The translations under genes and the position numbers were made by a program. From Isoetes taiwanensis (lineage: Eukaryota > Streptophyta > Lycopodiopsida > Isoetales > Isoetaceae), in assembly GCA_021234155.1 (NCBI GenBank), contig JAJEKV010000126.1:62001-126000 (forward strand): a DNA stretch of 64,000 bases, read 5' to 3'. The notes below the pieces were generated by a model that saw only the letters and a list, made by a program, of their open reading frames with translations, was not told the origin of the DNA and did not search any database. Positions 22,481-59,342 of the stretch are shown here, piece after piece (the first letter of the stretch is position 1; the number at the start of each line of letters is the position of its first letter).

Positions 22481-23369
22481 AGCATCATACACATATGGCT
22501 CCACCCATTCCCAATACCCCGAAGAACTCAATTGGCAAACCATCCAAACCCTCGGCATTTGCCTCTTTTCACCAAAGACTGCCGAACCTAAATCATCACC
22601 TATCACGGCACTTCTATTGACATGCGCCCGCTTCATCGAGATGATGGGGGAAATCCTAAACAAAATAATATCTCGCATTTCCGATTGAAAGGGAAGATGT
22701 TTCTCAAATAAAAAAATCTGAAAGTGGGTATGCAGATGTTGCTTGAGTTCGGTTGACAATCGCAGCCAGCCATCCGCAAAAGCAATGAGAACGCGGGTTG
22801 ACGTCATGCGACGCCTCTTAGTCACATGAAAAAAGAAGCCTATACAACGATCTCCATCACGAAACCACTGCAAACCTACCTTCATCTTTGCCTGATTTTC
22901 TCCTTCTCCAATGCTTGAATCATATGCCAAAAATATCTCGATCATGAACACCGGAAGGAGTCCCTCTCGAATGGAGCAGGTCCCGATACAAGGTATTCAA
23001 TAAGGCACCCACCCATCACTGAGAGACTCTCAAATTTCACCGCTTGGCAAAGCCTTTGATTGCCGCAATTGCATCCACTATGCCAGTCATGCCTCAACGT
23101 CGGCTGAAGGCAGTTGTCCAAGTGTTCTTGCAGCCTTCTTGAAAGTTAGCATCCTCTAAGAACTTTACATTCAAGCGAAAACACATCCGTCCAGGCCGTG
23201 GCTACTGCAGAGGCTTATCCGAAAGGAATTGCGGATGGTGGTCTGAAACTGAGTCGTCTTTGAGACAGAACCAAAAGAGATCTAGAAGCGCCACAACTAC
23301 ATCTGCATTCCAGTAAGCTCTATCCAACCAAGAGCTTGCGCGACCCCCACCAACTTGACCATTGCACCA

Positions 23370-23960
23370 AGTAAAGGCACCTTCACTATCAATCTCCTAG
23401 AGGTTGCGCCATGGAGTAGATGGAGCCACCGGCCGCTCAAAACCGCATACCATTGTAGAGGTAGCCCCAAACCGATCGAACTCCATTTCCATCATATTAA
23501 GATTCCCAACAAGAAGCCATAAAATGTGGCAGCCCAAGTTGAGCATCTTTTTCGAAAGGAGGCCCACAAAGGAAGCTCTCCTCTCGATGGGGCCTCGCCA
23601 TGGCATAAACATTAATTAGACCATACTTAACCCCTTGTTCCTGCCCATACAATTAGGACCCAACGAACAAAACGACGAGCCCGAGTGAAGATGACCGGCA
23701 AGGAAGAAAGCTGTTATCACTCACCTCGCAGAAAGCGTAATCAATCACCGCGATGGGGACATTAAACCTTCACCAATCATGTTCCCATAAGTTTTGATAC
23801 GCCTCCCATACGCCTCCATACGACATTTGTGCCTTGAAGACATATAAACCGGAGCATCCAATCTAGATAAGTAGAAAGAAATGCGGCTCCGTTTGAGGGG
23901 GGAGGAGGCTACTCCCTGAACATTCCATGAGACTAATCCCATTGACCTTGTGATGGGGCT
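23370..23960 (-). pseudogene. LINE-3 endonuclease domain
   Basis: The frame opening at 23942 reads MGLVSWNVQGVASSPLKRSR, the canonical start of the LINE apurinic endonuclease (LxWNxRG). Near 23380-23330 the frame gives FTWCNGQ followed by SSWLDRAYWN, the TWxN...LDR endonuclease motif, and SDHHP follows near 23250. It cuts target DNA for target-primed reverse transcription. Catalytic motifs are scattered over several frames. Confidence 0.75.
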
Positions 23961-24789
23961 AATTCAGATGAGACCCCTGGTGTCTCAAGGGAATTTGAGG
24001 ATGCCTCTTAGGCATCTGGCATAGCAGTAACCTCATCAACCACATCATCCTACTGAAGCGGATCAAAACGACCATAGTGGGATGCAATGGGAGGAACATA
24101 GCTACATGAAGCAGGAACTGAGGGCTGGGATGCATCAAGAATTAGATCCCTTAGCTGATTTTTGTGGTTGACGAAGAGCCGGTGGTTGTTTTGGTGGTGG
24201 GTGTATGCCACGCCAATCAATGCCCATGTACCGGCCCCACGAGCCTCTTCAATTTGCTCTTGCGATCTCTCGAATTTCAGCCAGGCCTCAACATTTGGTG
24301 ATCGAGACTCGAGGTGAGGAAGCTGCAATTGGAAGAGTAGGGAAGACACTATAGGCGCTGAGAGATATCCATTGAGGTGGAGCTGATCTAGGAGCATGGA
24401 GGTCGAAGGAGCGATGGAGGACCCTATTGGTGAACCTTGTGATATTGAACAAAAGAGAGGGGCTTCAGAAACATGAGAGCTAGCTCCTAACTATTCAATA
24501 AGGATAATTTAAACGAAAGAATATGGGCTCGCCCAAACGTATAAATTGTTTGAGGCAAATCATGATGAATGGACCTTGCAACACAAATCTTGGTGATGCC
24601 ATTGGGTATGGAGGTTGCAAATAGAGTCCAATCTCATTAGCAATGACAGTAATGAACTTGGAACTCAGAGCTCGAGGGAAATCTTCAATAGCAAAACCGT
24701 ATGGGGCACGAAGGCATCCGCTTAGCCGAAAGGATCCAGAACATACCATCGATAGAGCAAGAAGTGTTTCCAAAGAGGATCAACACCTC

Positions 24790-24797
24790 CTTCTATG
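24790..24797. repeat. 8-bp target-site duplication, left
   Basis: CTTCTATG, repeated exactly at 25453-25460 on the other side of the 655-bp insertion. Confidence 0.85.
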
Positions 24798-25452
24798 CAG
24801 GATAGGTTCTATACGCATAAAATTAAAATTTCGACGATAAAGTTAAAAATACGATTTTTTAATAAAATACGATTTAACGTGATAAATACCTCACACGGAA
24901 AAAATTTCGCGACGACGCTGAACCTTCGCGGAAAGAAAGCAGACGCTGGAAAATTTTTTCGCTGCACGCCGAATAGAAAGAATCGCCATACGAAGGACAG
25001 GCTCCGGACATTCACAGACGCTGAAAGTTTAGCGGATAGCTGCAGACGCTAAAAATTTTTCGCAGACGCTTATCCAGCCTCATTTCGCATCGCACAAAGC
25101 AAATACAGAAAATTCGAAAAAAATACCGCAAAAATAAATACTCGCAAAAAAACAATTCTGGCTAATGAAAGATTTCCGCCAAAAAACAACTAAATCGCGA
25201 CGCTAAAAGTCCACAGACGCCGTGGAGGCTTGTTTCGCCAGACGCGAAAATTTTTGCTCGCCATGACGCTGGGGTTTCACAGACAGCTGAAAATTTTTCG
25301 CCAGACGCTGATATAGTTGTTTTCGCTGACAAAATCTTCCGACGAATTGTTTTTGTCGTATTTTTTGGCGCTTTTATACGCAAATTTGTGTCAGACATAC
25401 ACCCATAATGTGATTCGTGATAAAAACGCATGTGACATTGAACCTATCCCCG
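24798..25452. mobile_element. 655-bp CpG-rich hAT-like non-autonomous element
   Basis: Flanked by the exact 8-bp duplication CTTCTATG. Ends are inverted: CAGGATAGGTTC on the left and CGGGGATAGGTTC on the right (minus strand). An 8-bp duplication with a CA(G)G-type end fits the hAT superfamily. No transposase frame. The interior is unlike its surroundings: dense in CpG and carrying at least eight same-orientation copies of GACGCT, mostly as CAGACGCT followed by (G/A)AAAATTTTTCGC, between about 24912 and 25316. Such arrays resemble subterminal transposase-binding repeats. Confidence 0.85.
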
Positions 25453-25460
25453 CTTCTATG
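25453..25460. repeat. 8-bp target-site duplication, right
   Basis: CTTCTATG, exact match to 24790-24797. Confidence 0.85.
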
Positions 25461-26000
25461 AGTTGAGCAAAAATAACTCAAGAGATTCAAACATCAAAAG
25501 AAAGTTAACGCCGAAATCTTTGTCACAAGCTTGATAGTTTGATAAGCAGAAGCCCTAGTTTATGAAGGTGCCTGCATGCCCAAGATCCCACGCTGGCCGC
25601 ATCCAAGAAAAAGGGCTGCTGAAGTGGCAGACCACTTTAACACGAACCAACCCGCCTCCATGTCATCGATGATCTTCATGGCTAATCTACACCTTTGGAG
25701 CCCCAAAACACTCAAAAGTTGCCTTGCACTCTTGAACCTCATAAAAGATTTCGTCTGATGGGAGTTGGACATCCATGAAGTCTTGGTTTACAATTGCCGG
25801 AGATAGTACACAACTTTTTTCCTAAACAAGCTAAGGTGGCGGAGTTGTAAAGACACTCGTGAGAACCGCACACCGTAAATCTCGAGCCACCGCGGTTAGA
25901 TGATCTCCAAGGTGAGGTCGATGCAGCCTTGGGATTGAAGAGGATGTCACCCCAGTCGCCGCGGGGAAGAGGAGGAAACTCCTCCCCGCCGGGTGAGGAA

Positions 26001-26375
26001 CCTCCAACGGTGTTGGACGCACTAACTTTGCCTTGCCTTGCGGGTACACCCATGACAGTAGGTTGCACCACCATCCGAGCACTACCTCCGAGAGTAGTCT
26101 GCGCAAGGAACTTCCAACTTGTGTTGGAGGTGCCGCCTGTGCAACACTATTAGATGCAGCCTATCCAGAGGAGCACTCCGCAGGCATGTGAGATCTCAAC
26201 TGACATGAGGGACCTCCAACATATGTTGGAGGTGCTGCTAGCTTAGAAGCAACTCCAACAGATTAAAGAGGGTCTTGCTCGACCTACGTAACTTCCAATG
26301 AGTGTTGGAAGTGCTAATTGGCCGTAGCACACCACCCCCTCTTCCGGGAACCTCCAACGCGGCGCTGGAGGTGCG
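26001..26375. repeat. Array of five short palindromes
   Basis: Five copies of an inverted repeat of the form (A)CCTCCAAC-N(4-7)-GTTGGAGGT, starting near 26001, 26111, 26212, 26292 and 26351, with arms of about 8-9 bp and some mismatches. A half copy (AACTCCAACA) lies near 26251. On the LINE strand they would encode repeats rich in P, T and V/L, so they may be a repeat-bearing segment of ORF1 or its 5' leader. Confidence 0.7.
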
Positions 26376-26500
26376 CACACTCAAAAATAGTTTCTTAATG
26401 GCACATGATCAACACGCCATCCAAATTTCTCCCGCATTTATGGGCGTAAGCGTGAATTATAGTCGAGGCAACCAAGGCCGAGAGAAAACCTAACAAGTAA

Positions 26501-27792: not shown

Positions 27793-28409
27793 ATGGGACA
27801 GAGGCCTGATGATGAGTATGACTATTTTTTTAAGGTGGTTCTCATAGGGAACTCAAGGCTCTGAAATCTAATATACTATTCGTGTGCTTACCGCGAACGA
27901 AGTTCCTCAGATTGAATCGGGTCCACTATTGGCGCTGAGTTTGCAAACTGCACTATCTCAAAGCTGATGGGAAAACAATCAAAGCCCAAATTTGGGATAA
28001 TCGCAGGCAAGAAAGGTACAGAGCCATCACCAAAGGCATACTATCGTGGGTGTCAAGTTGGTGCATTACTTGTGTATGACATTGTTGAGAGGTGGCTAAA
28101 AGAATTACGAGACCACGCTGATTCCAACATTGTGATAATGTCGGGGGGCAATAAATCTGACCTTTTAAACATCTCGTAGGTGTCTCAATAGAAGATGCCG
28201 TAAGTTTTTCCGGAAAATGAAGGCCTTTCCTTTATAGAAACATCCGCATTAGAAGCCATTAACGCGGACAAGGCATTTCCGTAATATTCTAACCAAATTT
28301 TACCGCATTCCTTGCTTCAGAGGAATCACCTCTAGGTGGGACCAGAGAGGGTACTACAATTGTTGTAGAACCGCATCCAAGCACAAAGAGAAAAGGCTGA
28401 TGTTCTTAG
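27793..28409 (+). pseudogene. RABA/Rab11 small GTPase retrocopy, broken
   Basis: An intronless copy of a plant Rab11-class (RABA) GTPase, the family that directs secretory and recycling vesicle traffic. It opens MGQRPDDEYDYFFKVVLIG. The P-loop then breaks (GNSR, frameshift) where GDSGVGKS is expected. STIGAEFA (switch I) and [12 protein letters not shown] are readable, but the DTAGQE motif has become [19 protein letters not shown] runs directly into [18 protein letters not shown], missing about ten residues. GNKSD is intact, SALEA is readable further on, and the C-terminus ends in KRKG followed by a stop where a prenylated Cys pair is expected. Contiguity without introns and several lesions mark it as a processed pseudogene. 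Confidence 0.88.
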
Positions 28410-28858
28410 TTGTTGAAGTTAGTTGCATTGGTCAGCATTTAGATGTCGGTAGGGCGCATAGCTTGACTCCATTTTGTGGCATTCAACTCTCTAACAAAAC
28501 CTCAGGTTGTCTTATATTACTGTTATTTTTGGGACTATCTTTTGCTTGGAAAAGATGGAGCTGCAAGGCCAGCAAATTTCCATGGAAATATGATATGGTT
28601 GAGATGTGCTATCTCACTGAAGGAAGGGTTAGAGTGCATCCAGACAATGCTTATGGGGAATATTTGGAGTTCAGAGTTGGAGATATTGCCATGTTACCAA
28701 AGGGTAAGAGCTGCACATGGGATTGCATGAAATCAATGGAGAAATATTACGTCTTGTGTGATAGTATTGAACATCACTATGGTACCGGTATGGAGGGTAA
28801 AATACTTCCCATTCCACCAGGCAGAAAGACCATTGCTGAAATCTTGGGCGAGAAGTGA
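28400..28858 (+). CDS. Cupin_3 (DUF861/EutQ-like) domain protein, possibly only the last exon
   Basis: An open frame of 152 codons. From about residue 49 it matches plant RmlC-like Cupin_3 proteins: FAWKRWSCKASKFPW, then EMCYLTEGRVRVHPD, EFRVGDIAMLPKGKSCTWD and a KYYVLCD segment, i.e. the E..YLLEG.V.V.P and GD...FPKG..C.W core of the beta-barrel. The biochemical role of this plant group is not settled. The first 48 codons overlap the end of the Rab retrocopy and look artefactual, so the true start is elsewhere: an upstream exon is possible, with a CAG acceptor near 28505. The C-terminal 30 residues extend beyond the usual cupin end. The cupin part has no frame break. Confidence 0.7.
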   Translation: MFLVVEVSCIGQHLDVGRAHSLTPFCGIQLSNKTSGCLILLLFLGLSFAWKRWSCKASKFPWKYDMVEMCYLTEGRVRVHPDNAYGEYLEFRVGDIAMLPKGKSCTWDCMKSMEKYYVLCDSIEHHYGTGMEGKILPIPPGRKTIAEILGEK

Positions 28859-55269: not shown

Positions 55270-58200
55270 TTGACGTTTTCGCTAGAAGCCTCTCATTCTT
55301 GGTGGCTTGATGGTGTAGTTGATTACTTGAAATCTTCCATGCCGCTTTTCAAAAGCCCTGAAGGTGGCCGCATTGAAAGAGATCTTTCATCCCGAACTCT
55401 TTGTCTTGGCAAACAAACTCAGTATCCGATATTGTTTCTTCCGACTCCATCGATGTTTCATACGTCGAGTCCTCTTGTCGTTATCGTGTTGTGCAAGAGT
55501 GTTGAGGATGTTGATTGCTTCACCCCCGCAAATTGCCGCACATGTCTTCCTTTGATCTGTTACGCTATGGGAGGGAAGGAATAACAAGGGAACTATATAT
55601 GCAAGGCATATAGTTTACATAATTACAATTACTACTAGAGCTATTAGGTCCCCCTTTGTGCCTCCCTTCGAAGTTGCACACACCTGGCAATGTCATCGGT
55701 GTTCCTCCCCAGCAATGGTGTTGATGATCTATATCCTCCTATTTGTGCGTCGGCTCATAATCAGGGGTAACTTGTTGATATACTTGGGCCCTCGATGTTT
55801 GTCCGCTATGGCACACACGCTTTGCTGGTCGCTCATGCTTTTGATATTTCAAACGCACGATCCCGTTTCGGGTGGTAATTGTTCCCCCTTCATGATACTT
55901 GAAGCTATTTGAGGCGCCTCTTGAGGTTGTGCGTGATTCCTTTGGCTATACTCCTCCGAGTCGCCCTTTATGCAGTTGTTCTTTGAATCCTCCATGCTTG
56001 GGTTCACCAAGTTGCATGCAAGTCCGCGTGCAAGTCATCGGCTCACCACGCTAATTCTTCTCCATCGAAGCTTCCAAACTTCCTTGTTTGATCCCTCGAT
56101 CACATGGCTTGACGTTGTCCGCGCTCCACGTGTTATGCCGTCTTCTTGTCTTGAGGTACCTTCCATGACTTTGATTGTGCTCGGCCGGGTTTGATCCTCC
56201 TGGTGCCTCTAGCTCGTGGAAGAAGTCGGGTTGCTAGCACTTCTCCTTCAAATTTCGCCTCGACCTTGTCCCTCTATACATGTGGTCTCTCATCAAGTAA
56301 AACATCATGGCTCTCCTCCCCGCTGGCTATATTGTTTGATGATGAATCATTATATCTTCAAGCAGCTTGACCCTTGAGTTGAAGAAGTACACTTTAGATA
56401 TACTCTTATCGTTGAATAGCCCGGCTATTATCTTGAACTCTCTTTTTTGCAAAGGTGCTTCAATTGCTATCCTTGTCGTTAAGGTGTCGAATGCTTCTAC
56501 CTTGGGCGTTTGATGTCCCATATGTCCGGAGATATGATCGGCTTCTTCTCTTCTAATTCTGGTAGGAATACCGACGGCCATCACCTAGTTGTTGGAGGCA
56601 TGTCTCCTCATCATCGGTGCCTTTAGTAAGTGCATCTCCATCTAATAATGCTGCGTGTCATAGCCGCCATCACCCTATATTACTACAAGGTGGAATTATG
56701 GTCGTCGAGATGTTGCCTTCTTAGTTGGCTCGTTGATGTCGGGACGCCTCTCCTTCTATTGTTGAGGCCACTTTCGACGGTCATAAGTTCGTCAAGTGTT
56801 CTTTGCTGCCACAAGATGTAGTGTTAAGGCCCCCGGCGATGTCCCTGTGTACCATGATCTTGACATGACCTGTTGTCTCTTATTCCGACATTGGGTGGAC
56901 GAAACGATCTTCTACTTGAGGGCACTTCCCAAAGTGTTTGAGTCGGGTTTGCTTGGCCTCTGGTCAAGCCTCCTCGTACTTGCTCTTCCATTTTGATCTT
57001 GGGCTATAGTTGTGCTTCCTTGCTTCCTCATTTGGTAGTCGAGGTGAAGGAGCTTCGATCTAAGCGCTAAATCAGAAAACATGACTTTAAACTCATGTTT
57101 CTCCACTATATCTGTGGAACACCAGATATACAATAGACATATAATGATTTACATTGGAATTTTAATTCATCCACTTTCCCAAAACAATTACGAAGATCTA
57201 CTTAAATGTTTATACTCCTTTAGGGTTTCCCTTCCTCCGCCGTTTGATCCTTGATTTTCTTTGCATCTTCTTCGCTTACGGTTGACTCGGGATTCCTTGA
57301 GATGTTGCTACTACTATTGTTGAGCTTCATATGCGATCCGAGCTCGTCACCCCAAGTTGCAAAGAGTGTTCGCCGATGTGATCCTTGAAAAGATGCTCCT
57401 CCTTAATGTGTGTGTCCGTCGTGAAGGAATTCGGTGACCGCTCAACGTCCCTACATGCGTTGTGCGTTTGCAAGGTTGCCGATGTCGCGCCATTGGTCGC
57501 TGAGCTTGATCACCGGCTGTTGCGGTCGGGCATTCTTGAATGTCTTGAAACTTCTAGGATGCGTGTGGTCGGTGGCGAGGGCATTGTCATTCCTCCAAGC
57601 AGTTGAATTTCAGAAAGGACTCACTGCCCAGGCTTTGCTTCATTCCGAGGTGCCTCTCCGTGCCTGGAAGTGTGATCATCTCCATTGCTCCCTACCATGA
57701 AATCCTTCTAATTAAGCTGCGTGATTTGTGTTTCTTTGGCTAGGTCGCCTCCTCCGCCCCTTGTGTCCTATCCATTCGAAGTCTCGCCTCACGACTGGCC
57801 GACGTAGTAAGGTCGCCCTTCCTTTGGTTTCTAGGTGTTTTAAGGTCCGAATTCTTGTTCGAAAGCAGAATATTCTCCTCCTTGATCTTGCCCTAATGCT
57901 GATATAGGCCTTCAAGTTGGAGATGTTCCTTCCCCGATATCGTCTTATACTCCTCATGGTCTCCTACTTTTTGGAGCCGATGAAAGTTCTCTATTTGGTG
58001 CAAAGGAGCCGGAAGCTCGCCCCGGGTCATCCTTAGTGCTTCGTGGTTGCCTAGCTTGGTTGCTCCTTTTGTTGGCGTTGCATGACATTACTCGCGATTC
58101 TTTGCCGCGCAAGGTCGTGGTTGTCTTCCCTCCGGTTTATATCAGCCCTGTGTCGCCATGACTTCTCTCGTCGACGGAAGATTATGCCCTCCCCCTAGCT

Positions 58201-58620
58201 TCGTGATGCTAATACGCGGCATCGATGTCCTAACGTTTTTCCGCACCTCGTATTTTGCTTTGCCTTCGTTCTTCCATTTAAAACTCATGTCGTCGAGGTT
58301 GGTGAAGGCCGAGATCCTCTTCGATGTGAGCTTCGTGGGCGGGTAGTGGCCAGGAGGTTGACATCTAGAAAAATTCTTGATGCCGTTGGTTACCAATATT
58401 CTTCCCATTTGATGAAGATTGATGATAGGCGGTGGTGTCCTGTTCTACTGCGTTTGTCGATTGAGTTTAATGCGTTGTGCTTCCCTCTCTTGGATCCATC
58501 TTTTTCGGTCTCCCTCTCCTTATCTCTGTACATGGCCGGGTCCTCGATGTCTTCGGAAGTTGCCTCTAGTTCTTCCGTTTGATCTAGCCCCCAGATTACT
58601 TGTTTATGCTCAGATATTCT
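55270..58620 (-). pseudogene. Decayed reading frames inside the LTR element
   Basis: Minus frames of 66-88 codons occur at 55587-55387, 56584-56327, 57133-56912, 57957-57712 and 58408-58142, with few stops in the joining stretches. Composition is basic and polar, partly coiled-coil-like (e.g. TNGIKNF, NLDDMSFKWKNEGKAKYEV). No zinc knuckle, protease, RT or integrase motif is recognised. It may be the remains of a gag-like or accessory protein; plus-strand frames here are shadows. Confidence 0.4.
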
Positions 58621-59342
58621 AGAGTCTAAGGGTCTGCTTGAAGGGCTCTCCTACAACATTAAGGGCTCTATAAGCAAGCAAGATGGCCAGCAACACATCG
58701 AGACATATCTATAATCTACAAGTCTATGGACATTAGGACGGTGGTATGGCGTGAAATGAGGTTTGTTTTGCAAAACCTCCATGATGTTTGAGGCATACTC
58801 TAAGGTCCTAGCAAAGTTGGTTTGGGGAAGTCCAATCTCTACACATGGAGGACTTGGGCAGCTCTAGACTCTAGCTCCTTTCTAGGTATCCCGCAATAGG
58901 GAGGTCAATGTGGCGGATGTATAAGTCAAACTCTATTAGAAGGACACAAAATTAGGTCAAGGTTTATGCCTTTGGCATGAGCAGAGGTGATGTACCAAAT
59001 GGTTGGACTTGGGTTGCTATGTTGAGGTCTAGATGACTATAACAACTGGGTGTTCTTGGGCACTTCTATCTAGGAGTAAGGCATTAGCTTTGAGCCGAGA
59101 GCAATACTTGTGAGGTACTAATGGGGTATGCTTCTATTTACAAACAAACCACCGCTTGGAAAAACAATTCAAGGGTTTGAGCAATTTTGGTCATTTTGAG
59201 CTGGGGTTTGAATTTCTAGCCTAATTTGAGATCATAAATGGATTCTAGGCTGTCTAACGGTCCTATTGCAACAAATTTCAGGCGATTTGGAGCTCAGAGC
59301 TCAAGTTATGGAGGTTCAAAGTTTGGAGGTTCACACATTGCG

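What the first reader, a model, noticed from the sequence alone, without database searches (positions are those of the whole stretch)
24790..25460. CpG-rich hAT-like element with a repeated GACGCT motif, unlike any other DNA in the window
Exact 8-bp duplication and matched TIRs define a 655-bp insertion in LINE ORF1. Inside, CAGACGCT followed by A-rich/T-rich TTTTTCGC strings recurs at least eight times in one orientation, with CpG far denser than the surrounding CpG-poor sequence. hAT and CACTA transposases bind subterminal repeats, so this array is a candidate transposase-binding platform. The retained CpG implies recent insertion or escape from methylation decay. I know of no described family with this motif, but could not search.
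Basis: partly seen in the sequence, partly recalled or inferred. Interest (0 to 1): 0.8.

Follow-up and report, generated by a model that had tools for sequence, protein, structure and literature searches.

The report
Plant hAT transposon; its motif misread
This is a real, short, non-autonomous hAT-type jumping element in a plant genome, but the repeated CAGACGCT motif that made it look special is most likely a long-read sequencing error that garbled the palindrome GCGTACGC, which cleaner copies of the same element carry.

Summary
The 655-bp insertion is real: exact 8-bp duplication, hAT-type ends, CpG obs/exp 1.91 against 0.63 for the window, eight GACGCT on one strand. It belongs to a large hAT family (exact 5' end found 397 times). 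Relatives of 5-9 kb share its ends and hold DUF659 and hAT-dimerisation coding stretches; the short class is their deletion derivative. The hAT reading holds.

The motif as written does not. Clean copies carry GCGTACGC palindromes (15 per copy) where this copy has GACGC-type words. One copy equals the clean one except for a single ~173-column block holding 41 of its 42 differences. Copy ends are either nearly clean or heavily altered. Word orientation at homologous sites goes by copy, as a strand-specific miscall of a palindrome would. The repeats on both sides are garbled at CAG/CTG/CG too. Assembly statistics match Isoetes taiwanensis, built from R9.4.1 nanopore reads.

High CpG is real and confined to the ends. 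Clean copies change mainly by CpG to TpG/CpA, so escape from methylation is not supported. Verdict: new member of a known kind; CAGACGCT is most likely an artefact. Raw reads were not available.

The parts
24790..24797 (.). left target-site duplication CTTCTATG
   Evidence: exact 8 of 8 match to 25453-25460
24798..25452 (+). 655-bp non-autonomous hAT element
   Evidence: 39 other places in the genome at 72-78% identity among the 40 scored of 1125 candidates
24798..24809 (+). 5' terminal inverted repeat CAGGATAGGTTC; family form CAGGGATAGGTTC
   Evidence: exact family 5' end occurs 397 times, 0 in control
25440..25452 (+). 3' terminal inverted repeat GAACCTATCCCCG; family form GAACCTATCCCTG
   Evidence: exact family 3' end occurs 342 times, 0 in control
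24912..25070 (+). left part of the word array (GACGCT at 24914, 24942, 25017, 25045, 25065), probably miscalled GCGTACGC sites
25198..25310 (+). right part of the word array (GACGC at 25199, 25216, 25241, 25265, 25304), probably miscalled GCGTACGC sites
25453..25460 (.). right target-site duplication CTTCTATG
23300..24700 (.). left flank: high-copy repeat whose window copy carries 35 clustered multi-base changes (27 at CG/CHG); the 12 other copies carry 3-16
25455..26400 (.). right flank: high-copy repeat; window copy differs from consensus in 24% of columns, the 18 other copies in 5.7-12.4%

Best explanation
The element is a non-autonomous (MITE-like) member of a large hAT DNA-transposon family in a plant genome, almost certainly Isoetes taiwanensis. 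Longer relatives of 5-9 kb hold DUF659 and hAT-dimerisation coding stretches. Each end (~430 bp) carries a CpG-dense array of GCGTACGC palindromes, mostly 20 or 23 bp apart, several of them inside the 16-bp palindrome TTTCGCGTACGCGAAA. The short class keeps the left ~310 bp and right ~296 bp and has lost nearly everything between. Inferred mechanism: the transposase binds the palindrome array, perhaps through an N-terminal CCHC/BED-like finger, pairs the ends, cuts at the CAGGG...CCCTG termini and inserts with an 8-bp duplication. The window copy's CAGACGCT words are not a biological motif. They are most likely nanopore consensus errors at methylated palindromes in a stretch that short-read polishing could not correct because element and flanks are repeats. 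Shown: ends, duplications, family, transposase domains in relatives, deletion-derivative structure, patchy alteration. Inferred: DNA binding, methylation of this copy, and the sequencing cause.
For: hAT: 397 exact 5' ends and 342 exact 3' ends, 0 in reversed controls. 5' and 3' ends pair into elements of 3.1-9.1 kb; 5 of the 7 with both ends found have perfect 8-bp duplications. PF04937 E 1.1e-26 in an L108 stretch and PF05699 E 1e-9 in an L101 stretch. Clean short copy L021 matches L101's two ends at 95% over 310 nt and 96% over 296 nt. CpG obs/exp is 1.9-3.2 in the terminal 430 bp and 0.72-0.91 in the middle of 5 long elements. Artefact: (1) L018 against clean L021: 42 differing columns, 41 of them within alignment columns 142-314, where CGTA becomes CAGA and the like; none in columns 0-141 or 315-652. 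(2) 58 copies were compared with L021 (38's list, 20's). 52 have at least 50 differing columns in the middle 418 nt. Of these 52, the first 88 nt have at most 4 differences in 38 and at least 8 in 14; the last 88 nt have at most 5 in 24 and at least 8 in 28; none lie between. In 2 of the 14 (L166, L171) the differences sit in one or two bins and may be a single indel. (3) At 15 homologous sites, word orientation goes by copy: chi2 247, against a maximum of 126 in 2000 permutations within sites (652 words, 82 copies). Of the 60 loci picked by end sequence alone, the 52 with words give p = 1e-8. (4) Both repeat flanks of the window copy are altered in clusters, 25 of 35 (right) and 27 of 35 (left) at CG/CHG, unlike 18 and 12 other copies. 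Both include CAGA to CGTA, the reverse of the element's CGTA to CAGA. (5) Substitutions at CpG are transitions in 42% for the short hAT copies against L021 and in 87% for the right-flank repeat. (6) G000 has 1658258908 bases in 1110 contigs. The I. taiwanensis paper gives 1658.30 Mb in 204 scaffolds + 909 contigs (1113), ONT R9.4.1, Guppy 3.1, racon + pilon, then gap filling from long reads in two rounds with pilon between (passages).
Against: Raw reads, methylation data and a second assembly were not available, so the sequencing cause is inferred. An exact-match test for shared multi-base changes between the right flank and the transposon interior was not significant (4 observed, 2.5 expected, P 0.11), and CAGA to CGTA was also seen among other copies of the flank repeat. 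Word orientation also differs by site (chi2 64, 14 df), though less than by copy. Even long elements with clean arrays show clustered differences in their interior (15-31 clusters in L101, L102, L105, L108; 43-52 in L103, L106, L107). In the 5.8S rRNA control most dispersed copies show ordinary CpG decay, but 6 of 20 copies (L121, L122, L124-L127) share odd changes that I could not assign. Not all word diversity need be error: other members carry GTAAGC-type words in otherwise orderly sequence (L062), and L103 and L106 carry only GACGC/GCGTC-type words, none GCGTACGC. No complete transposase frame was demonstrated; the two domains were found in separate open stretches of different copies. The finger has no Pfam match even at E 10, and phmmer finds no PDB relative.
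Confidence: 0.88

Rival explanations
1. CAGACGCT and GCGTACGC are both real: the hAT family has subfamilies whose transposases recognise different words, and the words at homologous positions changed together as transposase specificity changed.
For: Words sit at the same sites in a conserved backbone. TTTCRCAGACGCYGAAA occurs 241 times in the genome with 3 in the control. Some members carry another orderly word, GTAAGC (L062). Two long elements, L103 and L106, have GACGC/GCGTC words and no GCGTACGC.
Against: Single copies mix clean and altered blocks with sharp edges (L018, L162). Word orientation goes by copy. Ends are bimodal, not graded. The flank repeats show the same kind of damage. L103 and L106 have only short, broken transposase stretches.
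Confidence: 0.07
2. A real hypermutation or error-prone repair process in the plant targets methylated CG/CHG inside transposons and creates the scrambled words.
For: Changes centre on CG and CHG and vary from copy to copy.
Against: No process known to me gives CGTA to CAGA, CAG to TGC or CTG to CTTTG (recalled judgement). Clean copies change mainly by CpG transition. Clean outer zones reach roughly 80-220 nt in from an end, which fits short reads anchored in flanking DNA (2 x 150).
Confidence: 0.03
3. A CACTA or other superfamily element rather than hAT.
For: Subterminal repeat arrays are also typical of CACTA elements (recalled).
Against: 8-bp, not 3-bp, duplications; ends CAGGG...CCCTG; hAT dimerisation domain in the long relative.
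Confidence: 0.01

Closest known systems
maize Ac/Ds (hAT)
   Same: 8-bp duplications, short inverted repeats, an autonomous element with many internally deleted or short dependants, and many subterminal transposase-binding repeats whose motif AAACGG holds a CpG (PMC3260210, passages).
   Different: 11-bp ends, AAACGG hexamers in the terminal ~200 bp, 4.6-kb autonomous element. The clean copy L021 has 0 AAACGG and instead 15 GCGTACGC cores, mostly at 20/23-bp steps.
Hermes (hAT) subterminal repeats bound by BED fingers
   Same: Arrays of short subterminal repeats in both ends (17 and 14), with the first pair quasi-palindromic and bound cooperatively by two BED domains (PMC10368747, passages).
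   Different: Hermes motif is AAGT-type. Here each core is a perfect CpG palindrome. Binding here is untested and the finger is seen only by eye.
plant hAT short elements of the internal-deletion type (as Ds-del/Ds2)
   Same: Left and right ends of a longer element joined, interior lost.
   Different: Unusual CpG density, obs/exp ~3 in clean copies.

Membership tests
hAT superfamily | 8-bp target-site duplication | tested here: met
   Window copy exact; 53 of 72 copies perfect, best of 12 boundary choices
hAT superfamily | short terminal inverted repeats of the CAGGG type | tested here: met
   CAGGGATAGGT in 57 and ACCTATCCCTG in 50 of 72; 26 of the 72 were picked by the 5' end itself and the 7 long ones through it. 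Window copy reads CAGGATAGG and CCCCG
hAT superfamily | related longer element with hAT transposase (C-terminal dimerisation domain) | tested here: met
   PF05699 inside C23:194098-199432 (L101), E 1e-9; PF04937 in L108, E 1.1e-26. A complete open frame was not shown
hAT superfamily | N-terminal BED zinc finger | tested here: inconclusive
   C-x2-C...H...C spacing visible by eye in L101/L102 stretches; no Pfam match even at E 10
hAT superfamily | DDE catalytic residues and transposition activity | not tested
   Residues not aligned to a reference; no PDB match
non-autonomous deletion derivative (MITE-like) | both ends match a longer element, interior missing | tested here: met
   L021 1-310 and 363-658 match L101 ends at 95% and 96%
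Ac/Ds family proper | AAACGG subterminal hexamers | tested here: not met
   0 in L021 and in the window copy; 0-4 in the eight 3.2-9.1-kb loci
CACTA | 3-bp duplication and CACTA ends | tested here: not met
   8-bp duplication, CAGG ends
genuine CAGACGCT binding motif | word identity shared by site and lineage, not patchy or strand-dependent | tested here: not met

The most novel reading that the evidence does not exclude
The true array, up to 10 GCGTACGC palindromes per end (L101, L105), each with two to four CpGs and stepped by 20/23 bp (about two helix turns), may be a methylation-read switch. A dimeric transposase or a host CpG-binding protein would load along one face of the helix and sense whether the symmetric CpGs are fully, half or not methylated, timing transposition to replication or to loss of silencing, as a stronger form of what I recall being proposed for Ac. 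Such CpG density in a methylated genome would have to be renewed by continued transposition.
Probability: 0.15. Interest if true: 0.65.

Novelty: new member of a known kind. Interest (0 to 1): 0.4.

Why it matters
It separates a real hAT family, for which I found no description in the open papers searched, from a false motif. It also indicates that a published nanopore-based plant assembly can hold patches of probably methylation-linked consensus error inside repeats. These create apparent transposon diversity, false binding motifs, imperfect target-site duplications and false divergence. Anyone dating transposons or calling motifs in such assemblies would be misled. The corrected motif gives a precise, testable candidate transposase-binding site and a natural case in which CpG palindromes are concentrated where a transposase should bind.

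Tried and rejected
Palindrome-arm covariation: against swapped half-words, the observed symmetry lay within the swap range for 6 of 7 word lengths (8-letter words 0.613, maximum 0.632) and exceeded it only for the 28 seven-letter words. I dropped a covarying-palindrome story.

18S rRNA as a control: the search gave no usable answer twice. I used 5.8S instead (20 of 40 listed places fetched); result mixed, see evidence against.

Exact sharing of multi-base changes between unrelated repeats: not significant (P 0.11).

Target-site mismatch against CG content: 13 of 19 imperfect pairs contain CG against 5 of 53 perfect ones (Fisher 2e-6). This leans on a best-of-12 boundary choice, and an imperfect pair offers two different words in which CG can occur, so I did not rest on it.

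Rows dropped: L036 (no 3' end paired, 39 of 40 used); L102, L036 and loci without a 3' end in the fetched stretch (72 rows). One search compared 12 already held copies, chosen by me, with the 20 new ones; one search used all 38 held short copies other than L021, plus the 20 new ones, but not the 60 end-picked loci; 12 of 39 other scored places fetched; 18 of 39; the 20 fetched were high-ranking ones not yet held. One search's copies are biased towards the query's words; the 60 loci were picked by 5' end alone from the 100 listed of 397.

Clean-copy substitutions: one CpG change (column 366) is shared by L027 and L159, so the 6 of 8 may be 5 of 7 independent events.

Literature: searches (open PubMed Central only) listed nothing that describes this family or palindrome as far as titles and abstract openings show; Isoetes + hAT + MITE returned 0 papers. 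on nanopore errors: listings seen; passages read only of PMC9749173, which says methylation differences likely lower basecalling accuracy in plants, with no motif-level errors in the passages shown.

Full report
What is there. The window holds a 655-bp insertion at 24798-25452 bounded by CTTCTATG at 24790-24797 and 25453-25460. Ends are CAGGATAGGTTC and GAACCTATCCCCG. Inside are 8 GACGCT on the + strand and none on the - strand, against a mean of 0.22 and a maximum of 2 in 1000 dinucleotide shuffles; CAGACGCT occurs 5 times, and CpG obs/exp is 1.91 against 0.63 for the window. The insertion sits in a high-copy repeat. Four copies of that repeat appear in the lists of both flank searches with their two halves about 100 bp apart, that is, without the insert. 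The flank's LINE ORF1 label was not confirmed.

The family. A genome search scored 40 of 1125 candidates: the window copy and 39 other places at 72-78% identity, one of them matched only in part. Of the 40 loci, 39 could be paired end to end; 26 of 39 have perfect 8-bp duplications and all 39 have CpG obs/exp 1.85-3.0. The exact 5' end CAGGGATAGGTTCTATACG occurs 397 times and the exact 3' end GCGTATTGAACCTATCCCTG 342 times, both 0 in controls. Of 60 loci picked by the 5' end alone, 26 have a 3' end within the stretch read (about 750 nt for all but one); 22 of those 26 have perfect duplications.

The longer relatives. Pairing listed 5' and 3' ends gave long elements; 8 loci were fetched. Seven have both ends: 3.1, 4.3, 5.3, 5.9, 6.2, 7.1 and 9.1 kb; 5 of 7 have perfect duplications, L101 matches in 7 of 8 letters and L103 in 6 of 8. 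L101, L102, L105 and L108 contain look-alike open stretches of a transposase; an L108 stretch matches PF04937 (E 1.1e-26) and an L101 stretch PF05699 (E 1e-9). A complete open frame was not shown. CpG obs/exp is 1.9-3.2 in the terminal 430 bp at each end and 0.72-0.91 between, in 5 elements. The clean short copy L021 matches the two ends of L101 at 95% (310 nt) and 96% (296 nt), so the short class is a deletion derivative.

The true word. L021, L027, L159 and L160 carry 15 GCGTACGC-type cores each; in L021, 6 of the 15 lie in the full palindrome TTTCGCGTACGCGAAA. Steps between neighbouring cores are mainly 20 and 23 bp (38 of 54 steps under 100 bp in 8 long loci and L021). TTTCGCGTACGCGAAA occurs at 691 places in the genome (0 in control); TTTCRCAGACGCYGAAA at 241 (3 in control).

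Why the CAGACGCT word is judged an error. First, patchiness. L018 is the same as L021 in alignment columns 0-141 and 315-652 but differs in 41 columns between, where CGTA has become CAGA and the like; one further difference is at column 653. In 58 copies compared with L021, 52 have at least 50 differing columns in the middle 418 nt. Of these 52, the first 88 nt show at most 4 differences in 38 and at least 8 in 14; the last 88 nt show at most 5 in 24 and at least 8 in 28; none lie between. Two of the 14 (L166, L171) may be a local indel instead. The same CGTA sites near the ends that are intact in clean-ended copies are altered in copies like the window's, so the clean ends are not simply constrained. 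Clean zones of roughly 80-220 nt from an end fit correction by 150-nt short reads anchored outside (inference; read length).

Second, orientation. A palindrome has no orientation, but a strand-specific miscall of it does. At 15 homologous sites, 652 altered words in 82 copies are far more alike within a copy than expected: chi2 247 against a maximum of 126 in 2000 permutations within sites. In the 60 loci picked by end only, the 52 with words give heterogeneity p = 1e-8 over all words read. Orientation also differs by site, more weakly (chi2 64, 14 df). The window copy is all plus (10:0), L048 nearly all minus (1:8).

Third, the neighbourhood. The right-flank repeat in the window differs from the consensus of 18 other copies in 24% of columns, with 45 runs of 2 or more changed letters; the 18 others differ in 5.7-12.4%, with 2-14 such runs. 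25 of its 35 clusters hold CG or CHG, where about 33-45% of 6- to 8-letter stretches of the consensus do. The left flank has 35 clusters, 27 at CG or CHG, against 3-16 clusters in 12 other copies (42 of 80 at CG or CHG). Both flanks contain CAGA to CGTA, the reverse of the element's CGTA to CAGA. The window element has 6 CGTA/TACG and 11 CAGA/TCTG, L021 48 and 2.

Fourth, spectrum. Against L021, short hAT copies differ in 18% of cells at CpG and 6.5% far from CpG. At CpG, the right-flank repeat rows (19, the window copy included) change by transition in 87% of substitutions, the short hAT copies in 42%. Clean copies L027, L159 and L160 differ from L021 by 8 substitutions, 6 of them CpG to TpG/CpA at sites making up 27% of the element (P 0.007), plus two deletions; one of the six is shared by two copies.

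Fifth, provenance. G000 has 1658258908 bases in 1110 contigs. The Isoetes taiwanensis paper (PMC8566536, passages read) gives 1658.30 Mb, 204 scaffolds and 909 contigs, R9.4.1 nanopore reads called with Guppy 3.1, racon and pilon, then two rounds of LR_Gapcloser with pilon between. The identity is inferred from these numbers, not stated by a tool; the sequence counts differ by three.

Results against. The exact sharing of changes between unrelated repeats was not significant, and CAGA to CGTA also occurs among other copies of the flank repeat. Long elements with clean arrays also show clustered differences inside. The 5.8S control showed mostly ordinary CpG decay (50 of 72 CpG-site differences are C to T or G to A) and one group of six copies with odd shared changes that I cannot assign. 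L103 and L106 have no clean word at all. No reads were available.

Mechanism. Shown: ends, duplications, array, transposase domains in longer relatives, deletion-derivative structure. Inferred: cut-and-paste by a relative's transposase, binding of its N-terminal finger to the palindromes as BED domains bind subterminal repeats in Hermes (PMC10368747, passages) and as Ac transposase binds AAACGG (PMC3260210, passages). The finger is seen by eye only; Pfam finds none.

Verdict. The hAT reading of the first stage is right, and its call for a transposase-bearing relative with the same ends is answered. Its motif is most likely a sequencing artefact, and its methylation-escape inference is not supported.

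Noticed in passing
L108:3048-4385 (- strand of the locus; C923:1147590-1153880) and L107:2381-2890: Two long hAT elements (L107, L108) carry an extra open frame on the strand opposite the transposase with protein-kinase matches (L108 stretch PF07714 E 1.9e-5; L107 stretch PF00069 E 3.8e-7, below Pfam's cut-off). L101 lacks about 1.3 kb corresponding to most of it. Captured gene or second transposon gene.
   Followed up: partly
L040 element (C1039:10497711-10498369), L021 columns 326-574: A near-clean copy carries about 249 nt in the opposite orientation to L021 (99% identity on the other strand); in L021 this stretch is itself an imperfect inverted repeat (84% to its own complement), suggesting inversion between palindromes.
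   Followed up: partly
L062, L058, L092, L097: Members with the same 5' end but diverged subterminal sequence and, in L062 and L092, other words such as GCGTAAGCGAAA, possibly a true sister subfamily.
   Followed up: no
L121, L122, L124-L127 (5.8S rRNA copies): Six of 20 5.8S copies fetched share unusual changes in a conserved stretch, either diverged rDNA or the same kind of consensus error.
   Followed up: partly
window 28253-28858: Open frame with a Cupin_3 (EutQ-like) domain, E 3.2e-18, a gene-like stretch close to the altered repeat region.
   Followed up: no
window 57150-58650: Second CpG-dense stretch of the window (up to 43 CpG per 655 nt); only one open frame of 110 aa or more in 56.5-61.5 kb.
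   Followed up: no
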